Source of the DNA: Acidobacteriota bacterium
GTDB taxonomy: Bacteria > Acidobacteriota > Terriglobia > Bryobacterales > Bryobacteraceae
DNA length: 64,000 nt
Assembly: GCA_016213775.1 (NCBI GenBank)
Contig: JACQZR010000039.1
Span: 1-64,000, forward strand
Direction of reading: 5' to 3'
The notes under the pieces are model-generated. The model was not told where the DNA came from. It saw only the letters and a list, made by a program, of their open reading frames with translations, and did no database searches. Shown piece after piece: positions 1 through 25,009 of this stretch; the first letter of the stretch is position 1, and each line of letters opens with the position of its first letter. A program made the position numbers and the translations under genes.

Positions 1-516
1 CGGCCTCGAGCGGCGCGTTGAAGCTGTAGCTGAGTACATATGGTCCCGTATCCGGCAGAATCCAAATCGGCACCATGAAGAAGGCGTATTTGATACGGAG
101 GGCAATCTGGATGTGCGGCCGTCCGGCAGTTACTTCGGCGGGGAGGAAGAACGTTCGCGGGCGCGGGATCTGCGCGTCTTCATAAGAGTTCCAGTTACTG
201 GACGCGCCAGCCCGCCGCCCATTTACGTAAACCTCGTAGACGGTTTGAATCGTGCCCAGCGTCAAGGTCAACTGGGAATGGTCGGTTCCCTGCGGAAGCT
301 CCACCTTTCGGCGCAACCAATGCGGCTGCAGCAAGTGGCTTTCGCCAAGAGGTAGATTGAGCGTCTTCCACTCGCGATCGTCGAAGTCCATTTCGGCATA
401 CTCGGCCGGTCACCGTAGGCGAGCCGCCAGTCTCCGCTTAGATCCAGCCACAATGCCGGCTGCAATTGCGCCGATGAAGGGATAGTCATCAATAGGGTAA
501 GAAGGACAGTTCTCAC
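1..516 (-). pseudogene. Sensor-7TM-PP2C paralogue 1 of the array (partial, frameshifted)
   Basis: This is the start of the leftmost array member; it runs off the window. It opens with GTG inside the GTGA overlap with the stop of the next gene, after GGAGG with 5-base spacing. A signal peptide (MRTVLLTLLMTIPSSAQ) is followed by the family motif LDLSGDWRLAYGDRP. At about 404-409 one base is missing. After that point the homologous frame (EYAEMDFDDREWKTLNLP, then VYEVYVNGRRAG) continues open to position 1. Only the ectodomain lies inside the window, so the membrane and phosphatase parts cannot be judged. Either a true pseudogene or a base-calling error would explain the break. Confidence 0.75.
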
Positions 517-2359
517 GCCTGCCTCCGGACAGCCACCACGGTGATGTCATCGTTTTGTCCCCACTGCTGGGCGGCTGCGGCGATCGCGGACGCGGATTGC
601 ATGCTGATTGCACGGGTCCGGTCGAAGCCGAAGAGTTGTCCCTTTGCGTCGGCCGCTTCGACGACGCCGTCGGATAGAAAAGTGAGCGAACAACCTGGCG
701 GAATCGAATGGCGCGATTCGCTGTAGTCGACCTGGTGCGCCAACCCCAAGGGTAAGTTCGTGCTGACGGGCAATTCGACGCCCCCAGCGTAAGGCGCGAG
801 GTGGCCGGCGTTAGCGATCACAAGTTCACCGGAACGGTCCAAAAGCGCGGCGCAGCAGGTGACGAAGCCATCCCTCTGGCGGGCGAGAAGGGCGCTGTTC
901 AAATGACACAGCACTTCGCCCGGCTGCCGGGAATACTCGTTGTCGAGAGCGCCGGCAATGACCGCGACCGTCATTGCAGCGCCGAGTCCTTTCCCACTGA
1001 CATCGCCGACAATCACGAGCACCGAGCCGTCAGTACCGGGGAGGATGCGAAGAAATCGCCGCCAACCTGCCTGGCCGGATGATAGGCGCTTTCCAGGAGG
1101 AAGCCTGGAACATCGACGGCCTTGGGCACAAGCCGGGATTGCATGGAGCGCGCTGCGTCAAACTCGGCGCCCAGTTCCTCCTTTGCGCGCCATTCGTTCC
1201 AGATCTGGTGCAGTAGCAGAGAACACATCACGCCGATAATGATGATGGTCGCGATGGATTCGGTATCCAGCACATGGACGCCCCATTGCAGTGACATCGG
1301 CACAACGCGGAGAACGTCCGCGAGCAGAAGCGTGATGCCCCAGAACGCGAACGTTGCAGCGAGGAGGCGATGCCGCCCACCGCGAACGAACACCCAAAGA
1401 GCGAGGACGGTTTGTCCGGTAAGCCATCCGCCGAACAGGACTGTTCCGACACCTCCCACCGACGCGACCATCGGCGATGGCGCGGTGGCGACAGCCGCAA
1501 TGAATATCGGGACGGGCCATACTACGCCAACCACATTCAGCCAGCGGATTGTCCATCGTGGTACGTCAAAGGCCGCCCCGAGGAATTCATTGATTGCGAC
1601 GTTGAGGAAGACGGATCCGGCGCACCATCCCATCCAGTAGACCGAGTCCGGCCAATCGGTCCTCCAGTAGATGGGAGCCAATCCCCACAACGAGTTCGTG
1701 CCCCACAGCAGTGCAAATAACGAGAACCATTTCAGGACCGGCGCTCCACGCACCTTCAGCCACAGGATCACCAAAAGCAATCCGAGCAATGTTTCCAGCA
1801 GGCAAAACACAAACCACAAACTGAAGGCCAGCCGCTCCGATGCGATAGCGTGCGCCTCGCGGACCCGCATGAATTCGCGGCTGCCGATCTCCATGTCGAA
1901 TCGCAGTTGCGGATGGAATGCGATTCCGGCAGCGTAGCCTGGCGGAAGCCACCCGCGCCATGCGATGAGCGCCGTGGATCCCGGGGTTACCAATCCGTCG
2001 GGCAGGTCGAAGACCACCGTCGCGTAGCGTTTGCGGACGTCAGCGTGTGGCGGGAAACGGCCATGGCTTCCTACTCGCACGCCGTTGATCCACACTTCCT
2101 GTGGGATGGCGTCGGCATTCTCGCGAGACACGCGAACCGCAAGCGGGCTGCTGTCTGGAGGAACGGACACTCGCTCGCGAATCCACAGGAAGCCGTCGGA
2201 AGAGTATGGCGGAACGGGAAGCAGATCCGCTGTCAGTTGAGGCCAGCCGGCGTCGTCGAACGTTCGATCCGCCCACTTCAGGTTGTCGCCGAAGTGATAT
2301 CGCGTCTGGCCGTACGCTGTGAAGGTGAAGCACAGCAGGAGAATGGAATAGAGCCTCAT
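513..2359 (-). pseudogene. Sensor-7TM-SpoIIE phosphatase paralogue 2 (frameshifted in PP2C domain)
   Basis: One family gene is split by a single missing base near 1048. The first frame (1013-2359, 448 residues) has a signal peptide, an ectodomain of the GDNLKWADRTFDDAGW subtype, seven hydrophobic helices, a coiled linker and the PP2C motif VGGDFF, then runs out of frame and stops at 1013. The second frame carries the rest: GDVSGKG, SDGVVEA and GQNDDITVV, ending at 513. Restoring one C gives about 615 residues, normal for the array. At 1013-1016 the early stop overlaps an in-frame GTG of the second part (GTGA), so two separate products are conceivable. The second would lack the first metal-binding Asp. 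It starts in an ATGA overlap with the previous gene, behind AGGAGG. Confidence 0.8.
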
Positions 2360-4200
2360 CCCGGCCTCCTGATCGTCACGACGGTAATGTCGTCATTCTG
2401 GCCCCATGCTTTGGCGGCGGCAGCGATCTCCCGTGCGGACTTCATCGAGATCTCCCGCGTCCGGTCGAAGCCGAACAGTTCGCGCTGGGCGTTCTCGGCT
2501 TCGACGACGCCGTCGGAGACGATGGTCAACTGCCCGCCCGGAGCGAGCCTGAAACTGGATTCGGCCCAAGTGCTGTCCGGCACGATCCCGAGCGGCAGCC
2601 CGGCTTCCACATTGAGTTCCGCCCCCTGACAATAAGGCGCCAGGTGCCCGGCGTTGGCGACGGTCACCGTGTGGGCAACGATGCGGACGCAACAGCAAGT
2701 GACGAAACCGCCTGCGGCATGGCGCAACACGCCGGCGTTTAGAGAGGCGAGAATGGCCGCCGGAGAGGACGATCGTTCATTCTCGAGGATCCCGATCGCC
2801 ACCGAGACCAGCATCGCGGCTTTCAAGCCCTTTCCACTCACGTCTCCCACCACCACGGTAAGAGCGCCGTCCGGTTCCTCGCGGGTCCAGTGGAAATCGC
2901 CGCCCACTTCGAACGCAGGCTCATACACCGTATCGAGCTCGCAACCACCCATGCGGACCGTACCACCCCCGCCGAGCAGGAACCGCTGGGCGTTGCGAGC
3001 CGACTCCATCTCACCCGCCAGCCGCTGCTGCTCCCGGCGCTGCGCGGCGGTCTGCTGGAGCAGGAAAGTGACCATCACGGCCGCCACGCCGAGCACCATC
3101 AGGTGGCGGGACGAACAGAAGTAGCTCCCGAACTGCAGTAGATACTCGCCGGAACCGGCGGCTCCCGGGTAGATCCGGCTGGCGATCTGCTCGACCGCGG
3201 ACAGCGACAGAGCCAGAAGAAAGACATGCCGCCCGAGCGGCGCCCGTGCCGTGGCTGCGCGGGTCCAGGAGGCCGCCACGAGAGCCAGGGAAAGGCCGGC
3301 CGTGGCGAACGTGAAATAGCCGAAATGCTGACTCAGGCGAAATGGAAGTTGCAGCCACAACCAGGCGAGCCAGATGGCGGCATGGACCCAGGGCAGGCGG
3401 AATCCGAGCGCCGCCACGACAAACGATGTCGACATCGCTAACGCGCCGTAGCGCGTCAGGATCTGCAGCCAGATGAAGCCGTCGCGCGTGAACGGCCGGG
3501 CATCGGGCGCGATGAGCAGGATTGCCTGCAGGCCGTAGGCGGAGGTAGCGGCGAGGTAACCGCAAAGCCAGAGCAGCTCAGTGCGGTCGCGCTCGCCGAT
3601 CCACGCCAGCAACAAAGGGATGCACAACATGAGGCCGATGACACAGAGGATCAGCGTGGGGGTGTGCTGGGAGCGGCTCAGTTGCAGATCGCGTGCCCCT
3701 TCGCCGACTGGCGCGAGCGTCCGGTCAGTGAGCAGGTAGAGTCCCGGACCAGCGGACCGCCAGAACAGGGATGCGCGCGCCCCGCCTCCGAGGGAAAGGA
3801 CGATGGTTTGGGTCTTACCCGGGACGAAGGCATCGGCCGGTATGGGGAAAGTGCGGGTTCTCATCAACTGCGTGAGGGAAGCGTCGTCGAAATCTCCGAC
3901 CTTGGCGATGCGCCGGCCATTGACGAACACCTCGTAGGTAAATGCGAAACAACCGAGGGTCAAAGCCAATTGAGCACGGTTGGCGTCGTCAGGCAGGTCT
4001 ACGGTTCGCCTGAGCCGGCGTTGCCGGCGCTGCGGCTGCGTGAAATCCACAGGTGTCCACTGGCTGTCGTCATAGTCCGGCCGGAAAATCTCAGGCCCGG
4101 CACCAGCGCTGCCACGCCAGCCCTGCTTCAGATCGATGTACAACCCAGGCTGGCCAGCCAACGGAATGGAAAGCAAAGCCAGCAGTAAGCAACGGATCAT
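2356..4200 (-). CDS. Membrane sensor with SpoIIE-type PP2C phosphatase domain (paralogue 3)
   Basis: 614 residues. Signal peptide 1-16; beta-rich ectodomain about 17-170, resembling the jelly-roll sensor domains of 7TMR-DISM receptors (FRPDYDDSQW, YEVFVNGRRIAK); hydrophobic helices about 181-382; short coiled linker 385-405; SpoIIE/PP2C domain 425-612. The metal-binding motifs are present: VGGDF 432-436, GDVSGKG 452-458, SDGVVEA 562-568, NDD 602-604. The family dephosphorylates phospho-STAS proteins in partner switching; here the signal would come from the periplasm. The ATG overlaps the previous stop (ATGA), with GGAGG 8 bases upstream inside the last codons of that gene. The ligand is unknown. 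Confidence 0.88.
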   Translation of the reverse strand: MIRCLLLALLSIPLAGQPGLYIDLKQGWRGSAGAGPEIFRPDYDDSQWTPVDFTQPQRRQRRLRRTVDLPDDANRAQLALTLGCFAFTYEVFVNGRRIAKVGDFDDASLTQLMRTRTFPIPADAFVPGKTQTIVLSLGGGARASLFWRSAGPGLYLLTDRTLAPVGEGARDLQLSRSQHTPTLILCVIGLMLCIPLLLAWIGERDRTELLWLCGYLAATSAYGLQAILLIAPDARPFTRDGFIWLQILTRYGALAMSTSFVVAALGFRLPWVHAAIWLAWLWLQLPFRLSQHFGYFTFATAGLSLALVAASWTRAATARAPLGRHVFLLALSLSAVEQIASRIYPGAAGSGEYLLQFGSYFCSSRHLMVLGVAAVMVTFLLQQTAAQRREQQRLAGEMESARNAQRFLLGGGGTVRMGGCELDTVYEPAFEVGGDFHWTREEPDGALTVVVGDVSGKGLKAAMLVSVAIGILENERSSSPAAILASLNAGVLRHAAGGFVTCCCVRIVAHTVTVANAGHLAPYCQGAELNVEAGLPLGIVPDSTWAESSFRLAPGGQLTIVSDGVVEAENAQRELFGFDRTREISMKSAREIAAAAKAWGQNDDITVVTIRRPG

Positions 4201-6008
4201 GGAGCGCTCCTCCGCACCGTCACAACGGTGATGTCGTCGTCCTGGCCCCAGACTTTGGCGGCGTCCGCGATCTCGTGGGCGGATTTGAGGCTGATCTCGC
4301 CCGCCCTTTCAAAGCCGAACAGTTCGCCGTGTGCATTTCGCGCTTCCACGACACCATCGGAGAGAAACACAATGCGATCACCAGGATGAAGGTGTCGCGT
4401 CATGGTCGGATATTCGGCGTCGGGAACGACACCCAGCGGGAGGCCCGAGGGGACATCGATTTCGAGGCCGTTGCAATAGGCCGGCGGATTTCCGGCATTG
4501 GCGAAGGTAGCGCTCCCATCGTTCGAGAAGAGGGCTACACAACAGGTGACAAAGCCTCCCTGGAGCTGACGGTGCAACGACCTGTTCAGTTCCAGCAGCA
4601 CGCTGCCTGGCTCATCGGATTTGCGATTGAGGAGAATGCCGGCAATGACACTGACAAGCATCGCCGCGCGCAATCCTTTTCCGCTGACGTCGCCAGAGAG
4701 CACGAGCCGTCCGCCACCATCGCAATCGAAGATACGGAAGAAGTCGCCACCTACCTCGTCCGCGGGATGGTAGGCCGTCTCGATTTCATAATCCGGCGTC
4801 ACGAGGTCGTCGCGCGTCAGGAGCAATTCCTGCACCTCGCGGGCGGCGGCCAACTGTCCCTGCAATCGGGCGGCTACACCCTCTGACTGCCTGAGCCTGT
4901 AGAGGCGCACGCCGACGAGTACGGCGCCGAACGCGATGTTGCCCAATAAGCTTCGATTGAACGTCGCGTCCCCGATGTTGATCCCTTGATTGGACCCAAG
5001 CACTCGTGACACATCGAACAGGAAGATGACAGCCAGACCGACCGGCAGTAGACGCGATACGACGCCATGCCCACGTTGTTGAACGAGGATCGCCAGAACC
5101 ACCGGAAGATTCAGGGCGACAAGAACCTGAAATGCACCATGCAACAGTGGCAACCACGATGGAGCGGTGAGCATCAGCGAGGCGAGCGCGATCCCGAAGA
5201 AGTAGACGAAATTGATCAGTTGCATCAGGCGAAGCCACCATCTGGTGGCGACGCCGGCCAGGTGAGCGAGGAGTTCGAAATACACGACACACCCCAACGC
5301 CGTGAGGAATGCCGTTGTCGCGAAGCTGGTATTGTAAATGTCGAAGTAAAAGCCGGTGGAGAAAGCGGCGGCGTTGGCCGCATGAAGGAACAGATAAAGG
5401 GTGAGTAAGCGGAACTCCCGCTCGCCTCCATGTGTCTGGCCACCCATCCATAGAAAGAGGATGAGAAGCAGGGTGATGGACATGCCCCATTGCCGGCCGC
5501 GAACCAGGGACCGGACGCGATCGTAATAAATGGGAGTTTCGCCTTCGTTGTGGAGGAATAGTGGAGGCGCTGCACGGAAATCCGTCAGCCTGCGCAGGTC
5601 TCGACCGGGAAACCACCAGATGCGCAGCGCTACCGTGATGACCTTTCCCGGCGCCGCCAGATCAGCCGGTATGGCCCAAGCGCGGTAGTTGCCATTCACG
5701 TCACGCAGGCGCGGCGGAAGGCTACCGTTGCCGCCGATCAAGCGGCCCTCCGCGTAGACCTCCATGACGGCGCGTGATCCACCAATTACGGGGTCGACGA
5801 ATTTCTCCGGGAGCCGCACCTTGTAGCGCGCCCAGCACCATGTCTCGAGCAGATGCGCATTCACGTCCACCGTGCTGTTCCCGTCAATCCAGCCGCTATC
5901 GTCGAAGTTCGGATCCGCCCAAAGCATGTCGTCGCCGTAGTGGAACTTGACGGACTCCACCTGGGCCGTGGCAGAGGATGCCAGTAGCAGGAGCAGCACG
6001 ACGATCAT
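4197..6008 (-). CDS. Membrane sensor with SpoIIE-type PP2C phosphatase domain (paralogue 4)
   Basis: 603 residues with the array architecture: signal peptide (MIVVLLLLLASSATAQ), ectodomain, seven-helix region, coiled linker, PP2C. The ectodomain is the second subtype (GDDMLWADPNFDDSGW, then WARYKVRLPEKF), shared with paralogue 2, and lacks the LDLSGEWR opening of the others. PP2C motifs VGGDFF, GDVSGKGLRAAM, SDGVVEA and GQDDDITVV are intact, so activity is expected. It starts in an ATGA overlap; its Shine-Dalgarno (AGGGAAGG, 7-base spacing) lies in a short C-terminal extension of the preceding gene rather than in the usual Arg-Arg codons. Confidence 0.88.
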   Translation of the reverse strand: MIVVLLLLLASSATAQVESVKFHYGDDMLWADPNFDDSGWIDGNSTVDVNAHLLETWCWARYKVRLPEKFVDPVIGGSRAVMEVYAEGRLIGGNGSLPPRLRDVNGNYRAWAIPADLAAPGKVITVALRIWWFPGRDLRRLTDFRAAPPLFLHNEGETPIYYDRVRSLVRGRQWGMSITLLLILFLWMGGQTHGGEREFRLLTLYLFLHAANAAAFSTGFYFDIYNTSFATTAFLTALGCVVYFELLAHLAGVATRWWLRLMQLINFVYFFGIALASLMLTAPSWLPLLHGAFQVLVALNLPVVLAILVQQRGHGVVSRLLPVGLAVIFLFDVSRVLGSNQGINIGDATFNRSLLGNIAFGAVLVGVRLYRLRQSEGVAARLQGQLAAAREVQELLLTRDDLVTPDYEIETAYHPADEVGGDFFRIFDCDGGGRLVLSGDVSGKGLRAAMLVSVIAGILLNRKSDEPGSVLLELNRSLHRQLQGGFVTCCVALFSNDGSATFANAGNPPAYCNGLEIDVPSGLPLGVVPDAEYPTMTRHLHPGDRIVFLSDGVVEARNAHGELFGFERAGEISLKSAHEIADAAKVWGQDDDITVVTVRRSAP

Positions 6009-7810
6009 GCGAGAACCTTCCCTGGCAATGTCGCACGCCGCACGGTGACGACCGTGATGTCGTCGTTTTGGCCCCAGTCCCTTGCGGCGTCAGCGATTTC
6101 CTGCGCGGATCTGGTGCTCATCTGACGAGTCCGGTCGAAGCCAAGCAACTCGCCTTTGGCGTTGGCCGATTCGATCACGCCATCAGAAATGAAGACGAAC
6201 TGCTCACCCTTCATCGGCGACTCCTGGTAGTCGGCATCGGGCACCACACCCAGTGGCAACCCAGACTCCACCACTACCTCCTCGCCATCGTCATAGGGCG
6301 CCGGGTGGCCAGCGTTGGCGACACGAGTTGTTCCGTCCGCATCGAAGCGGGCGCAGCAGCATGTGACAAACCCGCCGCCGGTGTGTCCCGTCAACCCTTC
6401 ATTCAACGCGCGCAGAATCGCGGCGGGCGAACTGGATTTCTCGTTGCGCAGCGCACCGATGGCCACCGAGACGAGCATCGCCGCCTTCAACCCCTTTCCA
6501 CTTACGTCCCCGATGACGACGACCAGCGAACCATCCGGGGTTGTGCGATTCCAATGGAAGTCTCCGCCGACTTCCTGCGCCGGCTCATAGACAGCATCCA
6601 GATCCCAGGCACCACTTTGGGCTGCGGCAGCGGGCAGCAGCAATTGCTGAACGGTTCGCGCCGCTTCCAGTTCGCCGGCCAGGCGCTGCTTCTCGCGGCG
6701 ATCCGCCAGCAGCCGTCGGAGGGACAGAAAAGCGAGCAGCACGGAAAGCACAATCAAAGCACTCGAGGTCAGGTTGAGGTCGTAGCCGTTCACTTCGATA
6801 CTCGTCGGCAGCGCGCGGAGGCCGACATTGAAGTGCGACATCGTGACCAGCAGCAGCGTAACCCAGGTGAGACGGTCCCGTTGGCGGTTCCGCTGCCATC
6901 CGAGGAACAGGAGCACGAGCACGGCGAAGTCAAAAAGCGCGGAGGCGCGGACCGGCAATCGTAGCAGTAAATGCAGCAACCAGTAGCTCCAGACAAGGCC
7001 GTGCATCCACCAGGTTCGAACGTTTGCGAAAGCCATGATGAGTTCGGCCAACGCGGCGCTGCTCAGCGCGTGTGCGAAATAGGCGGACAGAGGAGCTGGC
7101 AGAGGGTAGGAATCGAGCGAGATGGCGAGGTAGAAGCAGATATGGATAGCGCCACGGCTGATGGTGAGCAGACCCAGCCACCACAACTCCACGCGATCCT
7201 TTTCAGCGAGCCAGAGAAGCCAGAAGAGCAACGCGCACGCCAGCAGACTGGCCCAGAGCACTAGATTCGGCGCCTGGTTGGTTTTTTGTCGCAAGAGCAG
7301 AAGGAGGTTTTCGTCAACCAATGAAGGGGCTGAGCCGGTGACCGCATACGTTCCGCCCGGGAACAGCGACAGCGCCTGAGCAACATCCATGCGCTCTACG
7401 TGAACGGCCACATGCAGCCGGGCGGGAAGCGGGCCTGGCGGGAGAGGAAAGGTCCGCGAGTGGGCCAACTGCGCCTCGCGAAAATCGCCGAACTTGCCGG
7501 CAACGGCAACTCGTTCTCCGTTGATGTAAACCTCGTAAGCCTCACCCACTGGTCCTACCGTGAGGAAGGCTGTTGCCGGTGAAAATCCAACAGGGACATC
7601 GACGCCGCGTCGCAGCCAGTAAGTCCCGATGGGCGGCCGCTGCGTCCAAGGCAGGCGGACGGTCTTCCAGGTGCGATCGTCGAACTGCGGATCAGCATAC
7701 GCGGGACGGTCGTCCGCGCTCATACGCCACTCGCCGCTGAGGTCAAGCAAGGGGCCCGTCTGGGCGGAGAGCGAGGGCGCACAAGCGAAAAGCAGCAACA
7801 AGAGTTTCAT
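6005..7810 (-). CDS. Membrane sensor with SpoIIE-type PP2C phosphatase domain (paralogue 5)
   Basis: 601 residues. Signal peptide (MKLLLLLFACAPSLSAQ); ectodomain of the LDLSGEWRMSADDRPAYADP subtype with FDDRTWKTVRLPW and YEVYINGERVAV; seven hydrophobic helices; coiled linker; PP2C with VGGDF, GDVSGKGLKAAM, SDGVIES and GQNDDITVV. All metal-site Asp residues are present. After the usual VRR end it has an extra ATLPGKVLA tail, whose codons supply the ribosome-binding site of the next gene. ATGA overlap at its own start with GGAGG 5 bases upstream. Its ectodomain matches the broken paralogue 1 closely and is a good template for repairing that gene. Confidence 0.88.
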   Translation of the reverse strand: MKLLLLLFACAPSLSAQTGPLLDLSGEWRMSADDRPAYADPQFDDRTWKTVRLPWTQRPPIGTYWLRRGVDVPVGFSPATAFLTVGPVGEAYEVYINGERVAVAGKFGDFREAQLAHSRTFPLPPGPLPARLHVAVHVERMDVAQALSLFPGGTYAVTGSAPSLVDENLLLLLRQKTNQAPNLVLWASLLACALLFWLLWLAEKDRVELWWLGLLTISRGAIHICFYLAISLDSYPLPAPLSAYFAHALSSAALAELIMAFANVRTWWMHGLVWSYWLLHLLLRLPVRASALFDFAVLVLLFLGWQRNRQRDRLTWVTLLLVTMSHFNVGLRALPTSIEVNGYDLNLTSSALIVLSVLLAFLSLRRLLADRREKQRLAGELEAARTVQQLLLPAAAAQSGAWDLDAVYEPAQEVGGDFHWNRTTPDGSLVVVIGDVSGKGLKAAMLVSVAIGALRNEKSSSPAAILRALNEGLTGHTGGGFVTCCCARFDADGTTRVANAGHPAPYDDGEEVVVESGLPLGVVPDADYQESPMKGEQFVFISDGVIESANAKGELLGFDRTRQMSTRSAQEIADAARDWGQNDDITVVTVRRATLPGKVLA

Positions 7811-9651
7811 TTCGCCCTCCGCACCTTGACAACGGTGATGTCGTCGCTCTGGCCCCAGGCTTGGGCGGCAGAGACAATCTCCTGGGCGGACTGCTGGCTG
7901 ATGCCACAGGTGCGATCAAAGCCGAACAGTTCCGGCTGTGCGTTGGTAGCCTCCGGCACGCCATCAGTGAGCAAGGTGAAGGCTGAGCCTGGTTGGAGCG
8001 GCAACGCAACCTCGGAATATTCCACCCCCCGCACGACACCCAGCGGAAGGCCTGCCGCCACCTCGACCTCCAATCCTTGCGCATAAGGAGAGACGTGGCC
8101 CGCGTTGGCGATTCGCAGGCATCCGCCGGGCTCTGCTCGCGCGCAGCAAGCGGTGACAAAGCCGCCGCGCAGATGCGTGCACACAACCTCATTGAGATTG
8201 CTAAGCAGGGCCGCAGGCGACGTTTCCGTTTCGCGTTCCAAAGCGCCGTGGATTAGAGAAACGAGCATCGCTGCTTTGAGGCCCTTGCCGCTGACGTCTC
8301 CGATTAGTATCAACCGCGCGCCATCCGGTTCTACGCGCGACCAATAGAAATCGCCACCAACTTCCTGAGCAGGCACGTAGCGTGCGTCAATCGCCCATTC
8401 GCTTCCGCCGGGGCTGGATTGGGCATTCAGAAGGAGCGATTGGACTGCCCTCGCAGACTCCATCTCTGAACCCAGCCTCTGACGTTCGCCCCAATCCGCG
8501 GCCGACCGGCGAAGCACATCGGCCATCATCAGAAATCCGATGAGCACCTGAGCCCAATTGTCGACACGGAACACCAAAGGACCAATACTGACCGCCGGCC
8601 CGGTAAAGTGAAATGTACTGGACATCAGGAAACTGCCGCAGAATGCGAGGATCAGGGCGAAGATGCCGGCGCCCGTCTGACGGCCAGCGAGAATTCTCCA
8701 CACTGCCAGCCCGCCGGCCACACCGAGCGTCGACAAATCGCCGAGAATATAAATCGGGCGACCAGGAAAGTACGGAATGGCGCAAATAGCGGGGAAGAAA
8801 AGGACGGGAAGAATCAGCCAGCCACGACTCACGCGGTTTATCATTGCCAGCGTGAACCCGAGGATCGCGATTTCGCCAAGATAGAATGTGCCTTCTTCGG
8901 CGGAAGCAACCCACCGCAGGTCGGTGGACGTTGGATAGATCGTGCTCCAGTGGAGTGCCAGGAAGATGGCGGAGGAAGCTGCGAATGAAACAAAGGCACT
9001 CCCCAACCACAGAGCTGCCGTCCAACCTCCTCTATTACGCCAAACGAAGAACAAGGCCGCGGCGAATACGAGATCGAGCAACAGGGTTGCGGCTCTCGGG
9101 AAGGTGGCCACCCGGCGGCGGTCGATCTCTCCGGCTACCGCAACCTTGGCTGCCTGCAGACTGGTCACGCGATAGAGTGCGGACGTTCGCACGACTTCGG
9201 AGGAGGCGTGCCTCGGAGCAACGTCCATCCGAAAGGCAATGTATAGCGTGGGGCTGGACCGAAGTATGCCGGCCGGGATCGGAAACGAATACATACAGGG
9301 CAGGACCACGTTTCCCATCCGAAAGTTGGGCGTGCTGCCCAAATGCAGGCCGTTCAAGTACACTTCATACTCGCCGGGCATCGTCCCCAGGACAAGCGCC
9401 TGTGGAGCGTCCACACTACCGGCAGGAATCTGAATTGTGCGGGTAAGCCAGTACATTCCGAATGGAAGATCGGAGACCGGGAGCGTCACCGATTTCCATG
9501 TGCCGGTATTCCCGCCCGCTTGCGCAAAGGCGGGGTTGTCGCCCTCGATCATGCGCCAGCCACTGCTCAAATCAGCCTCGAGCGAGCGTTCAGCCGGTTG
9601 AGCGGGGAGCAAGGGAGACAAGAGAATCAGATGCAGCAAGGCCCGCGTCAT
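7807..9651 (-). CDS. Membrane sensor with SpoIIE-type PP2C phosphatase domain (paralogue 6)
   Basis: 614 residues. Signal peptide ending near LLPAQPAE, then an LSSGWRMIEGDNPAFAQ ectodomain with YEVYLNGLHLG, seven hydrophobic helices, a coiled linker (RQRLGSEMESARAVQSLLL) and PP2C with VGGDFYW, GDVSGKGLKAAM, TDGVPEA and GQSDDITVV. The SDG of most siblings is TDG here and VVEA is VPEA, but the metal Asp is kept. The start lies in an ATGA overlap, with AGGAGG 8 bases upstream in the tail of the preceding gene. Predicted inner-membrane protein with periplasmic sensing and cytoplasmic phosphatase output. Confidence 0.87.
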   Translation of the reverse strand: MTRALLHLILLSPLLPAQPAERSLEADLSSGWRMIEGDNPAFAQAGGNTGTWKSVTLPVSDLPFGMYWLTRTIQIPAGSVDAPQALVLGTMPGEYEVYLNGLHLGSTPNFRMGNVVLPCMYSFPIPAGILRSSPTLYIAFRMDVAPRHASSEVVRTSALYRVTSLQAAKVAVAGEIDRRRVATFPRAATLLLDLVFAAALFFVWRNRGGWTAALWLGSAFVSFAASSAIFLALHWSTIYPTSTDLRWVASAEEGTFYLGEIAILGFTLAMINRVSRGWLILPVLFFPAICAIPYFPGRPIYILGDLSTLGVAGGLAVWRILAGRQTGAGIFALILAFCGSFLMSSTFHFTGPAVSIGPLVFRVDNWAQVLIGFLMMADVLRRSAADWGERQRLGSEMESARAVQSLLLNAQSSPGGSEWAIDARYVPAQEVGGDFYWSRVEPDGARLILIGDVSGKGLKAAMLVSLIHGALERETETSPAALLSNLNEVVCTHLRGGFVTACCARAEPGGCLRIANAGHVSPYAQGLEVEVAAGLPLGVVRGVEYSEVALPLQPGSAFTLLTDGVPEATNAQPELFGFDRTCGISQQSAQEIVSAAQAWGQSDDITVVKVRRAK

Positions 9652-11531
9652 GCCGGCTGCCTCCTGATCTTCACGACGGTGATGTCGTCATTTTGTCCCC
9701 AGGCCTTTGCAGCGGCAGCGATCTCGGCGGCCGATCGTGTGCTGATCTCGCGAGTGTGGTCGAAGCCAAACAATTCGCCGGAAGTGTTTGCAGCTTCCAC
9801 CACTCCGTCGGAGACGAACGTGAGGCATTGGCCTTCAGGGATGGCGAGTAGCTGTTCAGCGTATTGCGCTTCAGGGTCGATGCCGAGGGGCAAGCCTCCC
9901 TCAATCGGAACCTCATCGCCCGAAAGGTAAGGTGGCGGATGTCCGGCACTGGCGATGGACACACTGCCATCGGCGCCGCATAGCGCCACGGCTGCGGTAA
10001 CGAAACCGCCATCGAGGCCGGCGCAGAGCGCACGATTCAACTCGCCAAGTATGGCGCCGGGTGCATCACTGCGGCGATTGCGCAACACCCCGGCCAGCAG
10101 CGAGACGATCATGGCAGCCTTCAGGCCCTTACCGCTGACGTCGCCCACGGCCACCAGGTGCGCACCGCTGTCGAGCGGAAACACCTGATAGAAGTCGCCA
10201 CCCACTTCGAGCGCGGGTTGATACACCGCTTCGATGGGCGATCCATCCGGGAGAGGGGGAAACAGGAGTTGCTGCACGGTGCGAGCCGCAGTCAGTTCGT
10301 CGGCAAGCCGCTGCTTCTCTCGCCGTTCGACCGCGATGCGGCGGATCAACAGCACCAGAATCGTGACGGAAACCGGGAGCCAGAGAAGATCTTCGCGCCA
10401 CACACGGTACGGCCCGACGTAGAACCATTCCTGAAAGACCAGCAGGTCTGTGAGGTAGCGGGACCACAGCTCGAAGTATCCGATGGCCTGCAAGAGAAGG
10501 ACAAAATGGAAGAGGTGGTCTGGAACCGCCTCGCGGCTCCGCGGGATGCGGCGCCAACTTTGCAGGACGAGCACGATCGCCAGGCAAGCGATAAAGAAGT
10601 TGGCCGAGTTACCCCCCAGCCGGATCTGCCAGTCGAACAGGATCGTCAGCGGCAGCACCAGCCAACCCGCCCAAATTGCGGCGTAGACCCAGCGGGAGCG
10701 GAAGCTGAGGGCGGTAGCTACGAACTGCACGAACAGCGGATACATCGAGCAACCGGCAATCGCTGAAAGCACGGCGACACCAACCCGGTTGTAAGGCTGG
10801 GAGTACGGCGTGATGATCAGGTTGTTGTAGATGGCATTGAAGGCGTAGACCAGCGAAGTAAGGCCGAACCAGCCGATCTCGCGCCGTTCCGGTTCGCTGC
10901 GCCATGCCACCAGGCTGAGGAGCGCAATCAGCAGGAACGCAGTGCCGAACATCAGGTTGAATGAGTGGATCTCGCGCCAGATGGTCATTTGCTCGGCGGC
11001 GGTGTGGAGTGGCGCGTCGCGCCGGAGCGTAATGAGATACGGCCCTTGATCCGCAATGTCAAAGACAGGCGGCGCCCAGAACACCCACCGCAGGCGCAGC
11101 GCGATCAGTAACTCTCCGCTGGGCGGAATCACTTCGGCTGGAATATCGAACGTGAGAGGGCCGGGAATATGCGCCTCAGAAAACGAGTCGAGGTCGCCGC
11201 TGGCGCCGATGCGCTTTCCGTTGATCCAGACTTCATAGACATCGGCGAATGTGCCGAGCGTCAGGGATAGTGGGTTGTGGAAGGACCCCGCAGGCAATTG
11301 GACGCTTCGCCGCAGCCAACGGCGGGTTATGGAGTATCTTTCCAACTCGGCGCTTCTGCGGCTTGGCAGGACGAGAGTGCGCCATCTTGTGTCATCGAAG
11401 GCGGGATCGGCGAACGCAGGATTGTCCTCGTCGATCGCACGCCACGATCCGCCGAGATCGACACGGAGTGCGTTCTGGCAGAGCGCCGGACCGGCAGTAG
11501 CGAGCAGTAGCAGGGCGAGGAGGCGTATCAT
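9648..11531 (-). CDS. Membrane sensor with SpoIIE-type PP2C phosphatase domain (paralogue 7)
   Basis: 627 residues, the longest array member. Signal peptide (MIRLLALLLLATAGPALCQ), ectodomain VDLGGSWRAIDEDNPAFADP with FDDTRWRTLVLP and YEVWINGKRIGASG, seven hydrophobic helices, coiled linker (EKQRLADELTAARTVQQLL), PP2C with VGGDFYQV, GDVSGKGLKAAM, SDGVVEA and GQNDDITVV. It is the first full-length member in transcription order. It starts in an ATGA overlap with the deleted paralogue 8, using GGAGG 5 bases upstream. Confidence 0.88.
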   Translation of the reverse strand: MIRLLALLLLATAGPALCQNALRVDLGGSWRAIDEDNPAFADPAFDDTRWRTLVLPSRRSAELERYSITRRWLRRSVQLPAGSFHNPLSLTLGTFADVYEVWINGKRIGASGDLDSFSEAHIPGPLTFDIPAEVIPPSGELLIALRLRWVFWAPPVFDIADQGPYLITLRRDAPLHTAAEQMTIWREIHSFNLMFGTAFLLIALLSLVAWRSEPERREIGWFGLTSLVYAFNAIYNNLIITPYSQPYNRVGVAVLSAIAGCSMYPLFVQFVATALSFRSRWVYAAIWAGWLVLPLTILFDWQIRLGGNSANFFIACLAIVLVLQSWRRIPRSREAVPDHLFHFVLLLQAIGYFELWSRYLTDLLVFQEWFYVGPYRVWREDLLWLPVSVTILVLLIRRIAVERREKQRLADELTAARTVQQLLFPPLPDGSPIEAVYQPALEVGGDFYQVFPLDSGAHLVAVGDVSGKGLKAAMIVSLLAGVLRNRRSDAPGAILGELNRALCAGLDGGFVTAAVALCGADGSVSIASAGHPPPYLSGDEVPIEGGLPLGIDPEAQYAEQLLAIPEGQCLTFVSDGVVEAANTSGELFGFDHTREISTRSAAEIAAAAKAWGQNDDITVVKIRRQPA

Positions 11532-12181
11532 CCCGCCCTCCGAATCGTGACTACCGTGATGTCGTCGTTCCGGCCCCAGGCTTTTGCCGATTCGGCGATT
11601 CCCGGGGTGGACATCCGGCTGATCTCGCGTGTCCGTTCAAAGCCGAACAACGCGCCCTTCGGGTTAGCCGCCTCCACGACTCCGTCCGATACCACGGTGA
11701 AACAGTCTCCCTGGGCGACGTTTTCCGCGCAGACGGCATCCACAGTAATACCCAATGCAAGGCCGGGCTCGACCGCCAATGCGCGGCCGTTTCCGTAGGG
11801 CGCCAGATGCCCGGCGCATGTTCGTGGCAGGGACAGAGAAGTTTGTGCGTTGGGCTCTCCCCGTTGGCCCGCACGTTCGATCCTGATTCCGTTGCAGTAG
11901 ACTACGTAGGTCTCGGCGAATGTTCCGAGAGTCAAGGTGAGCTGTGATGTATCGACCCACTCCGGCAGCGTCACCTGCCGGCGCAGCCAACTTACTCCGT
12001 TGGGCGGCGACTCGAGAGTCGGCAGGTTCACGCGCTGCCATGCGTAGCCGTCAAATCCCGACTGCGCAAACGCGGTATCGTCTCTCGTCTTCGGGCGCCA
12101 CTCGCCGCTGAGGTCGAGATGGAGCGCAGATTGCGCGCCCACCGGAATCGCGAACGCCGGCACCAGCCATATGCGGCTCAT
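11528..12181 (-). pseudogene. Internally deleted sensor-PP2C paralogue 8, first in the array
   Basis: About 217 residues from MSRIW; an in-frame ATG at 12226 is the alternative start and neither has a clear Shine-Dalgarno. It keeps a signal peptide and about 100 residues of ectodomain (LDLSGEWRPKTRDD, then YVVYCNGIRIERAG). It then jumps, near 11818, straight to the second half of the PP2C domain (AGHLAPY, SDGVVEA, NDDITVV). The whole membrane region and the motifs VGGDF and GDVSGKG are gone, so it cannot be an active membrane phosphatase. The reading frame survives the deletion, as does the GGAGG-ATGA coupling to paralogue 7. Confidence 0.8.
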
Positions 12182-12305
12182 GAGTGGCGGGCAAACCCGC
12201 AGTCGATGGATTCCCAGGTTTTGCATGGAGCAGCCCCCTGAGCGCTCTGCACGTCAACCGGAGTGAAACTGCCCGCCATGCACCCGGTCATCGCGCGCCC
12301 GGTGT

Positions 12306-12650: not shown

Positions 12651-12652
12651 AA

Positions 12653-13096
12653 TCAATCAGTCCTTGCTTCCGCATTCAAATGAATTACCAGCCGTGCATA
12701 ACTGCCCGACTGCTCGCTTACGTACTCCACTTCGTCCACCAGCGCCTGAATCAGGAACATTCCCATTCCTCGCGGTGTTTCTTCGCCCGCCATTTTACGG
12801 TCGATATCCGGCACGTGCGCCACTTTGTGAACGCCTGCACCCTGATCGCGGATCTTCACTTCCAGCGACTCATCCTCAATTGACAGTGTCACCACCACAC
12901 CCAGATTCTCGTTGAGCTTATTCCCATGTTCGATCGCATTGATGCAAGCCTCCGCTACGGCTGTCTTGAGATCGTCGACGCGGTCCGGACTGAAACCCAT
13001 CAGTTCGGCCACGCTGGCCGCGGTGTACATTGCCACCTTTTCAAAACCCAAACGCGTAGGAAGCCGCAATTCTGTAACGATCGGATCTACGATCAC
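12653..13096 (-). CDS. HATPase_c anti-sigma-type serine kinase (RsbW/SpoIIAB-like)
   Basis: 147 residues starting at GTG in a GTGA overlap with the GAF-PP2C gene, GGAGG 6 bases upstream. A GHKL ATPase domain spans the protein: N box EACINAIEHGN about 49-59, G1 motif DQGAG, G2 motif RGMGMFLI. Kinases of this type phosphorylate STAS proteins and sequester a sigma factor or another regulator. No sigma factor gene is present here, so the target may be encoded elsewhere or may not be a sigma factor. It sits between a dedicated phosphatase and a STAS antagonist, the usual partner-switching order. Confidence 0.9.
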   Translation of the reverse strand: MIVDPIVTELRLPTRLGFEKVAMYTAASVAELMGFSPDRVDDLKTAVAEACINAIEHGNKLNENLGVVVTLSIEDESLEVKIRDQGAGVHKVAHVPDIDRKMAGEETPRGMGMFLIQALVDEVEYVSEQSGSYARLVIHLNAEARTD

Positions 13097-14280
13097 TGAA
13101 CCCCTCCCCGGTATAAATAGAGCGCGGTCATATCATCGGTCTGGCGGGCATTTCCTGAGAAACGCGCTAATACAGCCCAGATGTGATCGAGCAGATGATC
13201 GTTGGGCTTGTCCGCAAGTAGTCCCTGCAACCGTTCCTCCCCAAACTCTTCATCGCCCTGGAAAACCTCGGTGAGGCCATCCGTGTACAGGAGCAGTTGC
13301 TCTCCTTCGGCAATCGTGAACGTCTCCGTCTCGTAGGTGCGCCCAGGTAGCATTCCCAGCGGCGGCCCACTGGCGCCAATTGTCCGGACACCCGTCGCCC
13401 CTTTGAGAAACGCCGGATTGTGACCGCTATTCACCATATCCACACGATGCGTTTGCCGGTCCAGACAGAGCAGGATCGCGGTGACATAACGGCGTCGCGC
13501 CTCTATGCCCTCCTGCCAGTGCAGTGTGTTCAACCGCCCCGCGATTTCATGGAGCGACAAACCCGCTCCGCTCATCGCCCGAAAGCTGGAGCGAAATGTC
13601 ATGCTGATCATTGCGGACGCCAGCCCTTTGCCGGCGACATCGGCCAGCACCATCATCAGCCGGCCATCTTCCAACGGAATCACGTCGACATAATCGCCAC
13701 CCACCTCGTAGCAGGTTGTGGAGCGAAGGGCCAGCGAGTATCCGGGCACCTCTGGAACGGACTGCGGCAGCAAGCTTCGCTGGATGGCGCGCGCCGCGTC
13801 CAAATCCGCGCGCACCCGTTCCCATTCGATCATTCGCTCGTGGTGTTGGGCGTTCCCTATCGCCAGGGCAGCCTGATGCGCCAACCCTTCGAGGAAATCG
13901 GCTTCTTCAAAGGAAAGCGCCGCCGGGCGGTAGGTCACGAGATGTGCGATCGTCTCGCCGCGCTCGCCGGTCAACGGCGCACTCACATATCCCGTCATGT
14001 CTACACAGTCCGTCCACCGTGTCCAATCGTCGGGGACACACCCGTGGACGTGATTGCCGCGCGTGCCAAGCCGTCCCCCGGTGAGCGCGAAAAACGCACC
14101 CTCAGCCTCCAGCTCTTTGGCTGCGATCTCCAGCGTCATCGCCAGCACTTCGTCCAGCCGGATGGTAGAGTGCACACGCCGTGATGCCTCCAGCAGCCCC
14201 TGCACGCGGGCCAGTTTCTGCTGCAGTTCTACGATCTCGTTCCCTCCCGTCGTCGAAGGCATTGCCTTAGTTTCTCTCAT
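13093..14280 (-). CDS. GAF-domain SpoIIE-type PP2C phosphatase (RsbU/RsbP-like)
   Basis: 395 residues, soluble. Short coiled coil about 15-35 (VELQQKLARVQGLLEASRR), GAF-like domain about 36-155, linker, PP2C domain about 190-393 with VGGDYVDV, LADVAGKGLASAM, TDGLTEV and QTDDMTALYL. The motifs (AGKG instead of SGKG, TDG instead of SDG) differ from the membrane array, so it is a separate branch. ATG follows directly on the TAA of the upstream STAS gene; an internal ATG at 14262 is preceded by AAGG. Likely the cytoplasmic phosphatase of the core switch, with the GAF domain as sensor. Confidence 0.9.
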   Translation of the reverse strand: MRETKAMPSTTGGNEIVELQQKLARVQGLLEASRRVHSTIRLDEVLAMTLEIAAKELEAEGAFFALTGGRLGTRGNHVHGCVPDDWTRWTDCVDMTGYVSAPLTGERGETIAHLVTYRPAALSFEEADFLEGLAHQAALAIGNAQHHERMIEWERVRADLDAARAIQRSLLPQSVPEVPGYSLALRSTTCYEVGGDYVDVIPLEDGRLMMVLADVAGKGLASAMISMTFRSSFRAMSGAGLSLHEIAGRLNTLHWQEGIEARRRYVTAILLCLDRQTHRVDMVNSGHNPAFLKGATGVRTIGASGPPLGMLPGRTYETETFTIAEGEQLLLYTDGLTEVFQGDEEFGEERLQGLLADKPNDHLLDHIWAVLARFSGNARQTDDMTALYLYRGGVQ

Positions 14281-14637
14281 TTACAGTTGTTCGTGCTCTG
14301 AAAAAGCAGCCAGTGCCGACGCTTCGTCCGGAAAAACTTCGAAGGTGGCGTAGAGCTTCGTAATCTGGAGCAGTGTGCCGATGCGATCCTGGGGACGCAT
14401 CAGCTTCATCTGTCTCATTCTGGAAGAGGCCGATGCATAGGAACCGACCAGTTCCCCCAACCCCGCGCTGTCCATGTACCCGAGACCTGCCAGGTCGAGC
14501 AGCAGGTCGTTGCCTTCTTCCAGGGACTTGCGCACCGCCGTACGCAACAACCCCGTCCCGTCACCAAGTACCAGGCGTCCAGCCAGAGTCAAGATCTCAA
14601 TACCGTCCCGCTTGCGGCTGCTGATTGTGAATGACAT
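14281..14637 (-). CDS. STAS-domain protein, first gene of the switch operon
   Basis: 118 residues from MSFTISSRKRDG. An in-frame ATG at 14715 would add 26 low-complexity residues and falls inside the palindrome region, so the shorter start is preferred; neither has a good Shine-Dalgarno. The STAS fold is clear, with GYMDSAGLGELVGSYA around the conserved phospho-acceptor serine. A second STAS antagonist in one operon suggests either two targets or a relay like RsbS/RsbV. It directly abuts the GAF-PP2C gene (TAAATG). Confidence 0.87.
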   Translation of the reverse strand: MSFTISSRKRDGIEILTLAGRLVLGDGTGLLRTAVRKSLEEGNDLLLDLAGLGYMDSAGLGELVGSYASASSRMRQMKLMRPQDRIGTLLQITKLYATFEVFPDEASALAAFSEHEQL

Positions 14638-14650
14638 CGGCTGAGTTTGT

Positions 14651-14664
14651 GCAATTCCCTGCCC
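14651..14664 (-). promoter_or_regulatory. Possible sigma-54 promoter (GG-N10-GC) for the switch operon
   Basis: On the minus strand CGGGCAGGGAATTGCA has GG at 14664-14663 and GC at 14652-14651 with exactly 10 bases between, and the -12 part TTGCA is perfect. The -24 part is only partly like TGGCACG. The predicted start would lie about 2 bases before the ATG at 14637, implying a nearly leaderless message, which weakens the call. The divergent gene encodes a sigma-54 activator, which supports it. Confidence 0.3.
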
Positions 14665-14709
14665 GTCTGCAAGTGATTGTTTCTTCGTAGCACTTCCGGT
14701 ACCCGTAGC

Positions 14710-14746
14710 ATCCATAGGATAATGGCGCTATCCAAATGGATAATGG
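14710..14746. promoter_or_regulatory. Paired palindromes between the switch operon and the sigma-54 activator
   Basis: ATCC-ATA-GGAT lies at 14710-14720 and TATCCA-AA-TGGATA at 14729-14742. GGATAATGG occurs at 14717-14725 and again at 14738-14746, an offset of 21 bases, two helical turns. Twin dyads on the same helix face, 70-105 bases upstream of the possible sigma-54 promoter, fit an enhancer site for the divergent activator. The second dyad overlaps the start codon of that activator gene, which would also allow self-control. Confidence 0.5.
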
Positions 14747-16100: not shown

Positions 16101-16449
16101 TTTTCACATCGGGTCCTTGCGCGATGGCACGCTGGAGATACGCCTGATGGGGGCGCTCACGCTCGGACCGCGCCTTCGCCGCTGGGCCGTCGATGTGTCG
16201 GAGTGCATCACATCAAAACGGCCATCAGTGCTGTTCCTGGACGTCTCTGGACTGACCGCCATTGACAGCGCCGGACTAGGCGAATTGGTGATCCTCTTCA
16301 CAGCCGGCAGCGAACGGGACTGCCGCCTTGTCCTGGTCAATCCGCCGGCTCGCATCAGCCATTTGCTGACTACCACCAAGCTCGACGGTCTTCTGCCTCA
16401 GGCGGAGGATCTCGACGCAGCCCGCCGGATCGTACTCGAACGTCCTTAA
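16090..16449 (+). CDS. STAS-domain protein overlapping the sigma-54 activator gene
   Basis: 119 residues, starting 11 bases inside the activator gene, so translation is probably coupled. A STAS domain is evident (VLFLDVSGLTAIDSAGLGEL, the switch serine within IDSAG) and it matches the first STAS of the opposite operon in this motif. It is the third STAS protein of the locus. It could tune the activator directly or be another substrate of the phosphatases; the sequence does not decide this. Confidence 0.85.
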   Translation: MSLDFHIGSLRDGTLEIRLMGALTLGPRLRRWAVDVSECITSKRPSVLFLDVSGLTAIDSAGLGELVILFTAGSERDCRLVLVNPPARISHLLTTTKLDGLLPQAEDLDAARRIVLERP

Positions 16450-18522: not shown

Positions 18523-18537
18523 AAAGGAGTGAGACAC

Positions 18538-19911: not shown

Positions 19912-19993
19912 ACCCTTTTGCTCCATTTTCAAGTGTGATAGCATTTGCGCGGTTGCGCATCGCGCAGTGGGGATTTCTTGCAGAGGGGTAAGT

Positions 19994-23476: not shown

Positions 23477-23520
23477 TGGGAAGTGAATCATTCCCGTCGC
23501 CTCGATAAGGAGGTTTCAGC

Positions 23521-25002: not shown

Positions 25003-25009
25003 GAGAAGG

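What the first reader, a model, noticed from the sequence alone, without database searches (positions are those of the whole stretch)
513..12181. Eight tandem sensor-7TM-PP2C genes with 4-base overlaps at all seven junctions
Eight paralogues lie in a row and every junction is ATGA or GTGA (513, 2356, 4197, 6005, 7807, 9648 and 11528). They look like parallel inputs to one partner switch, made in fixed ratio by coupled translation. Multigene sensor-phosphatase arrays of this size are not something I can name from the literature.
Basis: partly seen in the sequence, partly recalled or inferred. Interest (0 to 1): 0.8.

Follow-up and report, generated by a model that had tools for sequence, protein, structure and literature searches.

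The report
Translation-coupled array of sensor phosphatases
An Acidobacteria genome carries a row of membrane sensor-phosphatase genes whose translation appears to be chained gene to gene, probably feeding many outside signals into one internal switch; relatives have longer rows in which backward-facing toxin-type genes sit without breaking the chain.

Summary
The row is real; all seven junctions are 4-base overlaps (six ATGA, one GTGA). "Eight" needs care: five genes are intact; the first lacks its 7TM and half its PP2C; the seventh is frameshifted; the eighth is frameshifted and cut by the contig edge (window base 1). Intact proteins have a signal helix, a GH2-type sugar-binding-like sensor, seven apparent TM helices and a SpoIIE-type PP2C. 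The array follows a STAS / RsbW-like kinase / GAF-PP2C / STAS operon. Of 150 family genomes, 13 carry this GAF-PP2C (E<=1e-50), and all 13 carry array-type genes or remnants. One relative has 23 overlapping ORFs in a row (33 kb). Sensors are about 30% identical, 7TM 17%, PP2C 51-61%, the last 49 residues 82%. The closing Arg-Arg codons are mostly CGG-AGG/AGA, a Shine-Dalgarno usually 5 nt before the next start. In relatives, antisense Uma2, MazF, PIN, HepT and nucleotidyltransferase genes sit between array genes; 29 of 32 tested leave open exactly the sense frame entered from the upstream overlap, against 13 of 138 gene-frames in controls. I take this as natural evidence for coupled translation. 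Best reading: a parallel-input partner switch made as one coupled chain. No biochemistry was done.

The parts
11528..12181 (-). array gene 1, internally deleted: signal peptide and sensor fused in frame to the C-terminal part of PP2C; no 7TM, no GDVSGKG
   Evidence: (SpoIIE profile positions 92-191 only)
9648..11531 (-). array gene 2, intact sensor-7TM-PP2C (627 aa); the protein whose structure was predicted
7807..9651 (-). array gene 3, intact sensor-7TM-PP2C (614 aa)
6005..7810 (-). array gene 4, intact sensor-7TM-PP2C (601 aa)
4197..6008 (-). array gene 5, intact sensor-7TM-PP2C (603 aa)
2356..4200 (-). array gene 6, intact sensor-7TM-PP2C (614 aa)
513..2359 (-). array gene 7, frame changed near 1013-1022 (ORFs 1013-2359 and 513-1022)
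1..516 (-). array gene 8, GTG start at 516, frame changed near 400, cut by the contig edge
12306..12656 (-). STAS protein directly upstream of the array (NSSG loop)
12653..13096 (-). RsbW-like HATPase_c_2 serine kinase
13093..14280 (-). soluble GAF-PP2C (SpoIIE) phosphatase of the core
14281..14715 (-). second STAS protein (DSAG loop), first gene of the minus-strand gene row
14736..16100 (+). divergent sigma-54 activator (GAF-AAA+, GAFTGA present)
16090..16449 (+). third STAS protein (DSAG loop), overlapping the sigma-54 activator

Best explanation
The array is the input layer of a partner switch. Each intact gene makes a membrane receptor: a periplasmic jelly-roll domain of the GH2 sugar-binding type, seven TM helices, a long helix, and a cytoplasmic SpoIIE-type PP2C. 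When its own ligand is bound, a receptor dephosphorylates a STAS protein of the neighbouring operon (12306-12656 or 14281-14715), which the RsbW-like kinase (12653-13096) had phosphorylated; the freed STAS then takes the kinase off its target. Many variable sensors so converge on one constant output. The genes are read from one message and translated as a relay: each PP2C ends in Arg-Arg codons that serve as the Shine-Dalgarno of the next gene, whose start codon overlaps the stop by four bases. Shown here: gene anatomy, junctions, codon bias, conservation pattern, linkage and co-occurrence, open relay frames in relatives. Inferred: ligands (sugars), the STAS target, the direction of control, the output (possibly the sigma-54 activator), and that translation really is coupled.
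For: Junctions. PF07228 in all window copies tested, PP2C motifs in the five intact genes. Model of gene 2: mean pLDDT 88.8; seven long helices from residue 190 on, which I read as TM, the last continuing to 423; nearest solved folds are SiaA-PP2C 6k4e and RssB; the N-terminal part matches GH2 sugar-binding domains (6d8g E 9.7e-18) and a sialic acid esterase (7kmm E 1.1e-18). Core operon. Of 150 family genomes, 13 have the GAF-PP2C at E<=1e-50; 12 of these, and no other genome, have a sensor-7TM match at E<=1e-20 (Fisher p 7.5e-17; cut-offs set after seeing the lists); the 13th (G097) has a sensor-7TM ORF beside its STAS. Variable input, constant output: 90 proteins, within/between genomes: sensor 30.8/28.8%, 7TM 17.6/16.6%, PP2C 60.6/57.8 and 50.9/45.4% (two parts), tail 82.2/76.0%. 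Codon bias: at 81 overlaps with Arg-Arg, the second codon is AGG in 64 and AGA in 12, against 5.0% and 2.9% of 3,666 Arg codons; spacing 5 nt in 65 of 81. Relay frames: 29 of 32 antisense inserts open in the frame entered from the upstream overlap. A five-gene row in another lineage (L061) has the same 8-base overlap at all four junctions.
Against: No biochemical or expression data. Gene 1 lacks the catalytic half, and genes 7 and 8 are frameshifted, so part of this array may be dead. The same-genus genome G125 has three genes on C280 that end in a single Arg without this Shine-Dalgarno; of its three junctions seen, one is a 4-base overlap, one a 1-base overlap and one has none. In G058, G125 and G041 the core was found on a contig other than those of the array genes, and in G142 the single array-type gene lies 1.7 kb away on the other strand. 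24 of 103 junctions are neither direct nor relayed 4-base overlaps, pseudogene breaks included. No sigma factor was found among the neighbours scanned. PF07695 (7TMR-DISM) does not match the window's proteins.
Confidence: 0.65

Rival explanations
1. Ordinary tandem duplication: the overlaps are simply copied with each unit and have no function in translation.
For: A unit that carries its own 3' end copies the junction; 4-base overlaps are common in bacteria (PMC6728339, abstract and passages). In G125 the four full-length copies group together in the sensor-7TM tree, though with very low support (5), and their sensors average 61% identity. L061 repeats one 8-base overlap four times.
Against: The five intact window genes fall in five separate places of the tree and each has its best sensor-7TM match in another genome, so they are not recent copies. 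Sensor fourfold sites are near saturation (within 0.385, expected 0.333) while the AGG/AGA choice is kept. Relay frames through antisense genes are open far above controls.
Confidence: 0.15
2. The membrane PP2Cs are real receptors but act on other STAS proteins or other phosphoproteins of the genome, not on the adjacent switch.
For: The genome has 11 further SpoIIE-type matches on other contigs, 10 of them over most of the domain, so other switches exist; only gene linkage ties the array to this STAS/kinase pair.
Against: Co-occurrence with the core (13 core-bearing genomes of 150) and direct adjacency to the same STAS in the window, G071, G118, G097, G133, G129 and G030.
Confidence: 0.15
3. 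A decaying or fast-turnover array: copies are born and lost, and most have no present function.
For: Gene 1 is internally deleted and genes 7 and 8 are frameshifted in the window; G111, same genus as G071, holds only broken pieces of the whole locus; several arrays hold remnants.
Against: All five full-length genes of the window keep the PP2C motifs, and gene tails average 76-82% identity between and within genomes. Both window frameshifts lie at the contig end.
Confidence: 0.1

Closest known systems
SiaA of the SiaABCD system (Pseudomonas aeruginosa)
   Same: SpoIIE-type PP2C output; SiaA-PP2C (6k4e) is the top structural match; that SiaA is a membrane protein acting on a STAS protein is recalled
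   Different: one copy, no seven-TM receptor and no GH2-type sensor (recalled)
RsbU / SpoIIE branch of Rsb partner switches
   Same: PP2C + STAS + RsbW-like kinase; the scheme is described in PMC8256260 (passages read)
   Different: no sigma factor gene found beside it; many membrane phosphatases in place of one; a sigma-54 activator lies divergent
7TMR-DISM receptors
   Same: periplasmic all-beta domain, seven TM helices, long helix to the output; PF07695 matches 2 of 41 aligned proteins; signalling helix with PP2C outputs noted in PMC1592074 (passages read)
   Different: window proteins do not match PF07695 at E<=0.1; the sensor resembles GH2 sugar-binding domains, and no DISMED model was among the hits
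Sorangium cellulosum and Streptomyces coelicolor SpoIIE-like expansions (PMC2887360, passages read)
   Same: many SpoIIE-type phosphatases in one genome (13 and 46)
   Different: the word 'tandem' does not occur in that paper's main text; the S. cellulosum ones described are fused to other domains
Termination-reinitiation coupled gene pairs (PMC6728339, abstract and passages)
   Same: ATGA overlap with a Shine-Dalgarno in the upstream gene
   Different: there pairs were tested; here long chains of paralogues, with relay ORFs through antisense genes

Membership tests
SpoIIE-type PP2C phosphatases (PF07228) | match above the curated cut-off | tested here: met
   five intact genes 109.6-115.9 bits, cut-off 25; gene 7 C-terminal piece 110.8; gene 1 only 31.3 over half the domain
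SpoIIE-type PP2C phosphatases (PF07228) | conserved motifs (VGGDF, GDVSGKGL, S/TDGVxE, DDIT; their role in metal binding is recalled) | tested here: met
   all four in genes 2-6; gene 1 lacks two
Rsb-type partner switch | STAS protein with phosphorylatable Ser, RsbW-like kinase and PP2C together | tested here: met
   which Ser is phosphorylated is recalled, a Ser is in that loop of all three STAS proteins
Rsb-type partner switch | sigma factor as the partner | tested here: inconclusive
   none among the 20 proteins scanned between 513 and 28514; a sigma-54 activator instead; the rest of the genome was not searched
Rsb-type partner switch | kinase phosphorylates and PP2C dephosphorylates the STAS | not testable with these tools
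   needs purified proteins
7TMR-DISM receptors | seven TM helices between an extracellular domain and a signalling output | tested here: met
   seven long helices in the model of gene 2; no TM predictor was run
7TMR-DISM receptors | 7TM region matches PF07695 | tested here: inconclusive
   0 of the window's array proteins at E<=0.1, 0 in its genome, 2 of 41 aligned proteins, best E 3.4e-6
7TMR-DISM receptors | DISMED1 or DISMED2 extracellular domain | tested here: not met
   no DISMED hit at E<=0.01 among 41 members; GH2-type models in 7-8 of 41 instead
Integron-like cassette array | integrase gene and attC-type sites | not tested
   only the likeness of passenger genes (toxin-antitoxin) was noted, from recall
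Termination-reinitiation coupled gene pairs | 4-base or 1-base stop/start overlap with SD in the upstream gene | tested here: met
   definition from PMC6728339 (abstract and passages)
Termination-reinitiation coupled gene pairs | translation of the downstream gene depends on the upstream one | not testable with these tools
   only indirect evidence here

The most novel reading that the evidence does not exclude
These arrays are open-ended collections of interchangeable sensor cassettes, sharing a constant 3' module (PP2C tail, Arg-Arg Shine-Dalgarno, ATGA) that hands ribosomes to the next cassette. Antisense toxin-antitoxin and Uma2 nuclease genes live between cassettes as stabilising passengers, and the strand opposite to their genes is kept open as 'relay' ORFs so that the ribosome chain is not broken. 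A coding requirement on the non-coding strand of a resident selfish gene would thus be imposed by translational coupling of the host operon.
Probability: 0.5. Interest if true: 0.85.

Novelty: new variant of a known kind. Interest (0 to 1): 0.7.

Why it matters
Here up to 23 ORFs form one overlapping chain, 15 of them receptors with one kind of output. That makes it possible to ask how a cell weighs many outside signals on one switch, and how far termination-reinitiation can carry ribosomes along a message. The relay frames through antisense genes give an evolutionary test of translational coupling that needs no reporter, and suggest a way in which toxin-antitoxin genes can be held inside an operon.

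Tried and rejected
Recent local duplication as the origin of the window's copies: rejected, because the five intact genes fall in five places of the sensor-7TM tree (FastTree, with long-branch warnings) and each has its best match elsewhere. Wholesale gene conversion of the conserved 3' ends: only weakly supported; fourfold-site identity in the tail is 0.503 within genomes against 0.409 expected (G071 0.671, window 0.471 on 155 sites), so protein-level constraint explains most of it. The ~115-330 aa sense ORFs in the gaps of relatives as a new protein family: rejected when the opposite strand gave strong Pfam matches. Separate promoters: the consensus scan found 2 sites against 3.3 expected in 1-15000, the only minus-strand one just before the first gene (14767-14740); too weak to use. 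Literature: no paper in the library joins SpoIIE to 7TMR-DISM, PP2C to partner switching and Acidobacteria, SpoIIE to tandem and Solibacter or Solibacter to serine phosphatase; the listings were seen, and three of the papers listed there were opened by passages; one irrelevant paper joins Uma2 and Acidobacteria. For the antisense passengers, 54 papers held 4 of the 5 terms and I saw 10 listings and read none, and of 88 with Uma2 I saw 20 listings: that this pattern is unpublished is not established.

Results against the relay reading: 3 of 32 antisense genes are closed in the entering frame (G013:C74 96-512, after the last array gene of that contig; G058:C573 75549-76121; G041:C128 16119-16463), and 5 of the 29 open ones end in a relay ORF whose stop is not NTGA (one row per antisense gene, a few rows are remnants). 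17 of 49 detected passenger genes were not tested, for the reasons listed (11 no array gene within 1 kb upstream, 4 same strand, 2 upstream stop not NTGA). Of the four on the same strand one, a PIN gene in G058:C505, lies between array genes. Passenger genes fall into related clusters (at 60% identity, 8 Uma2 and 8 PemK clusters over all 49), so the 32 are not independent. Controls are 46 Uma2/PemK genes outside arrays, out of 60 fetched loci from six genomes, best matches first, the window's genome included. An earlier count by guessed gene starts gave other numbers; with domain envelopes replaces it, and the Uma2 and PemK tests with it. Uma2 enrichment was tested for G013 alone, the most extreme; listed matches on array contigs beside or between array genes are 5 of 21 in G058, 1 of 15 in G071, 1 of 44 in G118, 0 of 10 in G129 and 0 of 46 in the window's genome (list cut).

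Full report
What is there. On the minus strand of the first 12.2 kb the window holds a row of genes joined by seven 4-base overlaps: GTGA at 513 and ATGA at 2356, 4197, 6005, 7807, 9648 and 11528. Five genes are intact (601-627 aa). The first is a 217-aa in-frame deletion product that keeps the sensor and the end of the PP2C; the seventh changes frame near 1013-1022; the eighth changes frame near 400 and is cut by the contig edge. Window base 1 is base 1 of contig C147 in a 10.96-Mb, 314-contig assembly, and the genome search for the sensor-7TM part finds 9 matches, 8 on this contig and one weak partial hit on C157. The array may well be longer than seen.

What each protein is. PF07228 (SpoIIE-type PP2C) matches all five intact copies, and the four PP2C motifs tested are present in genes 2-6. 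An AlphaFold2 model of gene 2, made with 40 relatives from the window and from the search for related loci (alignment), has mean pLDDT 88.8: a signal-type helix, a beta-rich domain, seven long helices from residue 190 that I read as TM, the last continuing to 423, then PP2C. The nearest solved folds are SiaA-PP2C and RssB for the output, and GH2 glycosidase domains for the sensor. Over 41 aligned members, Pfam at E<=0.01 gives SpoIIE in 41, BetaGal_ABD2 in 8, Glyco_hydro_2_N in 7 and 7TMR-DISM_7TM in 2. I take them as divergent relatives of 7TMR-DISM receptors with a carbohydrate-binding-like sensor; that they bind sugars is inference.

Surroundings. Upstream on the same strand lie STAS 14281-14715, GAF-PP2C 13093-14280, RsbW-like kinase 12653-13096 and STAS 12306-12656; divergent from them a sigma-54 activator with GAFTGA and a third STAS. 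Among 150 genomes of the family, the GAF-PP2C matches 26 at E<=1e-40 and 13 at E<=1e-50; between the two groups identity falls from 49% or more to 40% or less. The sensor-7TM profile matches 59 of 150 at E<=1e-6 and 12 at E<=1e-20 (at most 11 candidates per genome were scored, so copy counts are lower bounds); the next three are at 1.5e-19, 1.7e-17 and 7.9e-16. All twelve are among the 13; the remaining one, G097, has a sensor-7TM ORF beside its STAS, and one of the twelve, G111, is broken in both parts. The two cut-offs were set after seeing the lists. In the window, G071, G118, G097, G133, G129 and G030 an array-type gene directly follows the same STAS; in G013 an antisense Uma2 gene lies between. 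In G058, G125 and G041 core and array genes are on different contigs, and in G142 the one array-type gene is near but on the other strand. So the array belongs to this switch in evolution; the biochemical link is inferred.

Distribution and size. Full-length genes by a fixed rule in the contigs fetched: G118 25, G058 23, G071 12, G013 8, G129 6, G000 (window) 5, G125 4, G041 3, G133 2, G142 1, G030 1, 90 in all. The longest chain, on G118:C8, is 23 ORFs with 22 NTGA overlaps over about 33 kb (one search prints 24 ORFs and 23 junctions because a further 12-aa ORF follows); 15 of its ORFs are full-length sensor-7TM-PP2C genes. The trait is patchy: three other genomes of the window's genus gave no match, and G111, of the same genus as G071, has only broken pieces. 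A whole-phylum sample of 297 genomes gave matches in 25, the window's included, at E<=1e-15 (only 5 candidates scored per genome): one to three each, save two genomes of another family (G200, G212) that reached five, on separate contigs. A named record outside (L061, JASHQH010000304, titled Acidobacteriaceae bacterium JOPF070) has five such genes in a row with an 8-base overlap at all four junctions, and L057 and L067 have two each with a 4-base overlap.

Variable input, constant output. Mean identities within/between genomes: sensor 30.8/28.8%, 7TM 17.6/16.6%, first part of PP2C 60.6/57.8%, second part 50.9/45.4%, last ~49 residues 82.2/76.0%. The window's five intact genes fall in five places of the tree, and 56 of 90 genes have their best sensor-7TM match in another genome. 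The sensor types therefore look older than the genera.

Translation. Of 103 junctions evaluated in nine genomes, 66 are direct 4-base overlaps, 13 run through one or two intermediate ORFs with 4-base overlaps throughout, and 24 are other, the latter including pseudogene breaks (the nine counted for the window include two made by the frameshifted genes, and some direct ones lead into relay ORFs that carry a PP2C tail). Of 108 gene ends, 81 have both the overlap and Arg-Arg; the second Arg codon is AGG in 64 and AGA in 12, against 5.0% and 2.9% among 3,666 Arg codons of the same kind of genes, and 65 of 81 have a 5-nt spacing to the start. So the end of each phosphatase doubles as the ribosome-binding site of the next gene. 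Overlaps of this kind couple translation in 13 of 14 tested pairs of H. volcanii and E. coli, with a contribution of the Shine-Dalgarno that varies from pair to pair (PMC6728339, abstract and passages).

An unexpected part. Gaps of roughly 0.3-1 kb in the arrays of relatives hold other genes, nearly always on the opposite strand. Of 20 such proteins given to Pfam, 8 are Uma2, 4 PemK/MazF, 3 PIN, 1 HepT, 1 clear and 1 weak DUF2204 nucleotidyltransferase, 1 a weak CcdA-like antitoxin, and 1 has no match; 19 are antisense to the array, one PIN gene is in sense. In G013, 6 of 17 Uma2 matches of the 6.0-Mb genome lie on the 26-kb array contig (binomial p 9e-11). On the sense strand an ORF starts at the overlap of the upstream array gene and runs through the antisense gene, often ending in a PP2C tail and ATGA into the next array gene. 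Testing every antisense passenger that follows an array gene ending in NTGA: 29 of 32 are free of stops in the entering frame, 24 of these 29 rows end again in NTGA, and in 23 of 32 only one of the three frames is free. Uma2: 8 of 10, against 5 of 25 control genes outside arrays that are free in any frame (p 0.0017) and 5 of 75 gene-frames (p 1e-6). PemK: 10 of 11, against 7 of 21 (p 0.003) and 8 of 63 (p 6e-7). The passengers form related clusters, so events are fewer than genes, but the entering phase differs between them and the open phase goes with it. The simplest reading is that a passenger survives only if ribosomes can pass. I found no such passenger in the window's own array, whose junctions leave no gap.

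How it most likely works. A chain of coupled receptors with varied sensors and one kind of phosphatase output acts on the neighbouring STAS proteins against one RsbW-like kinase. Steps shown: anatomy, coupling signals, linkage. Steps inferred: ligands, substrate, direction, output.

Limits. The named genomes with arrays are metagenome assemblies, and array contigs often end inside the array. Counts depend on profiles built from the window's own genes and from the first passengers found. The literature library holds only open-licence papers.

Noticed in passing
L033, L132 (G118:C8), L035 (G013:C74), L040, L135, L041, L043 (G058), L039 (G071), L140, L141 (G129): Antisense Uma2, PemK/MazF, PIN, HepT and nucleotidyltransferase genes between sensor-phosphatase genes, with the sense frame through most of them open and overlapped at both ends.
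   Followed up: yes
L051 (G111:C26, about 33.8-38.6 kb): The whole locus (STAS, kinase, GAF-PP2C and array genes) is broken into short ORFs, while G071 of the same genus has 12 full-length array genes.
   Followed up: partly
L061:6856-16708 (JASHQH010000304): Five sensor-7TM-PP2C genes in a row with an 8-base overlap (ATG...stop) at all four junctions: an array with another kind of overlap.
   Followed up: partly
own genome G000 and window 41025-41420 (-): 46 Uma2-family matches in the window's genome, one of them in the window, none in the array.
   Followed up: no
L047 (G125:C280), same genus as the window: Three array-type genes that end in a single Arg, with a 1-base overlap and a 1-base gap; the genome's four full-length copies group together (low support), sensors 61% identical: perhaps a separate, younger expansion.
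   Followed up: partly
window 18217-27247 (+): A sulfatase, an outer membrane barrel with carboxypeptidase-regulatory domain, a GHL6-type protein above its Pfam cut-off and one with only weak glycosidase matches lie beyond the switch; possibly a carbohydrate-use locus.
   Followed up: no
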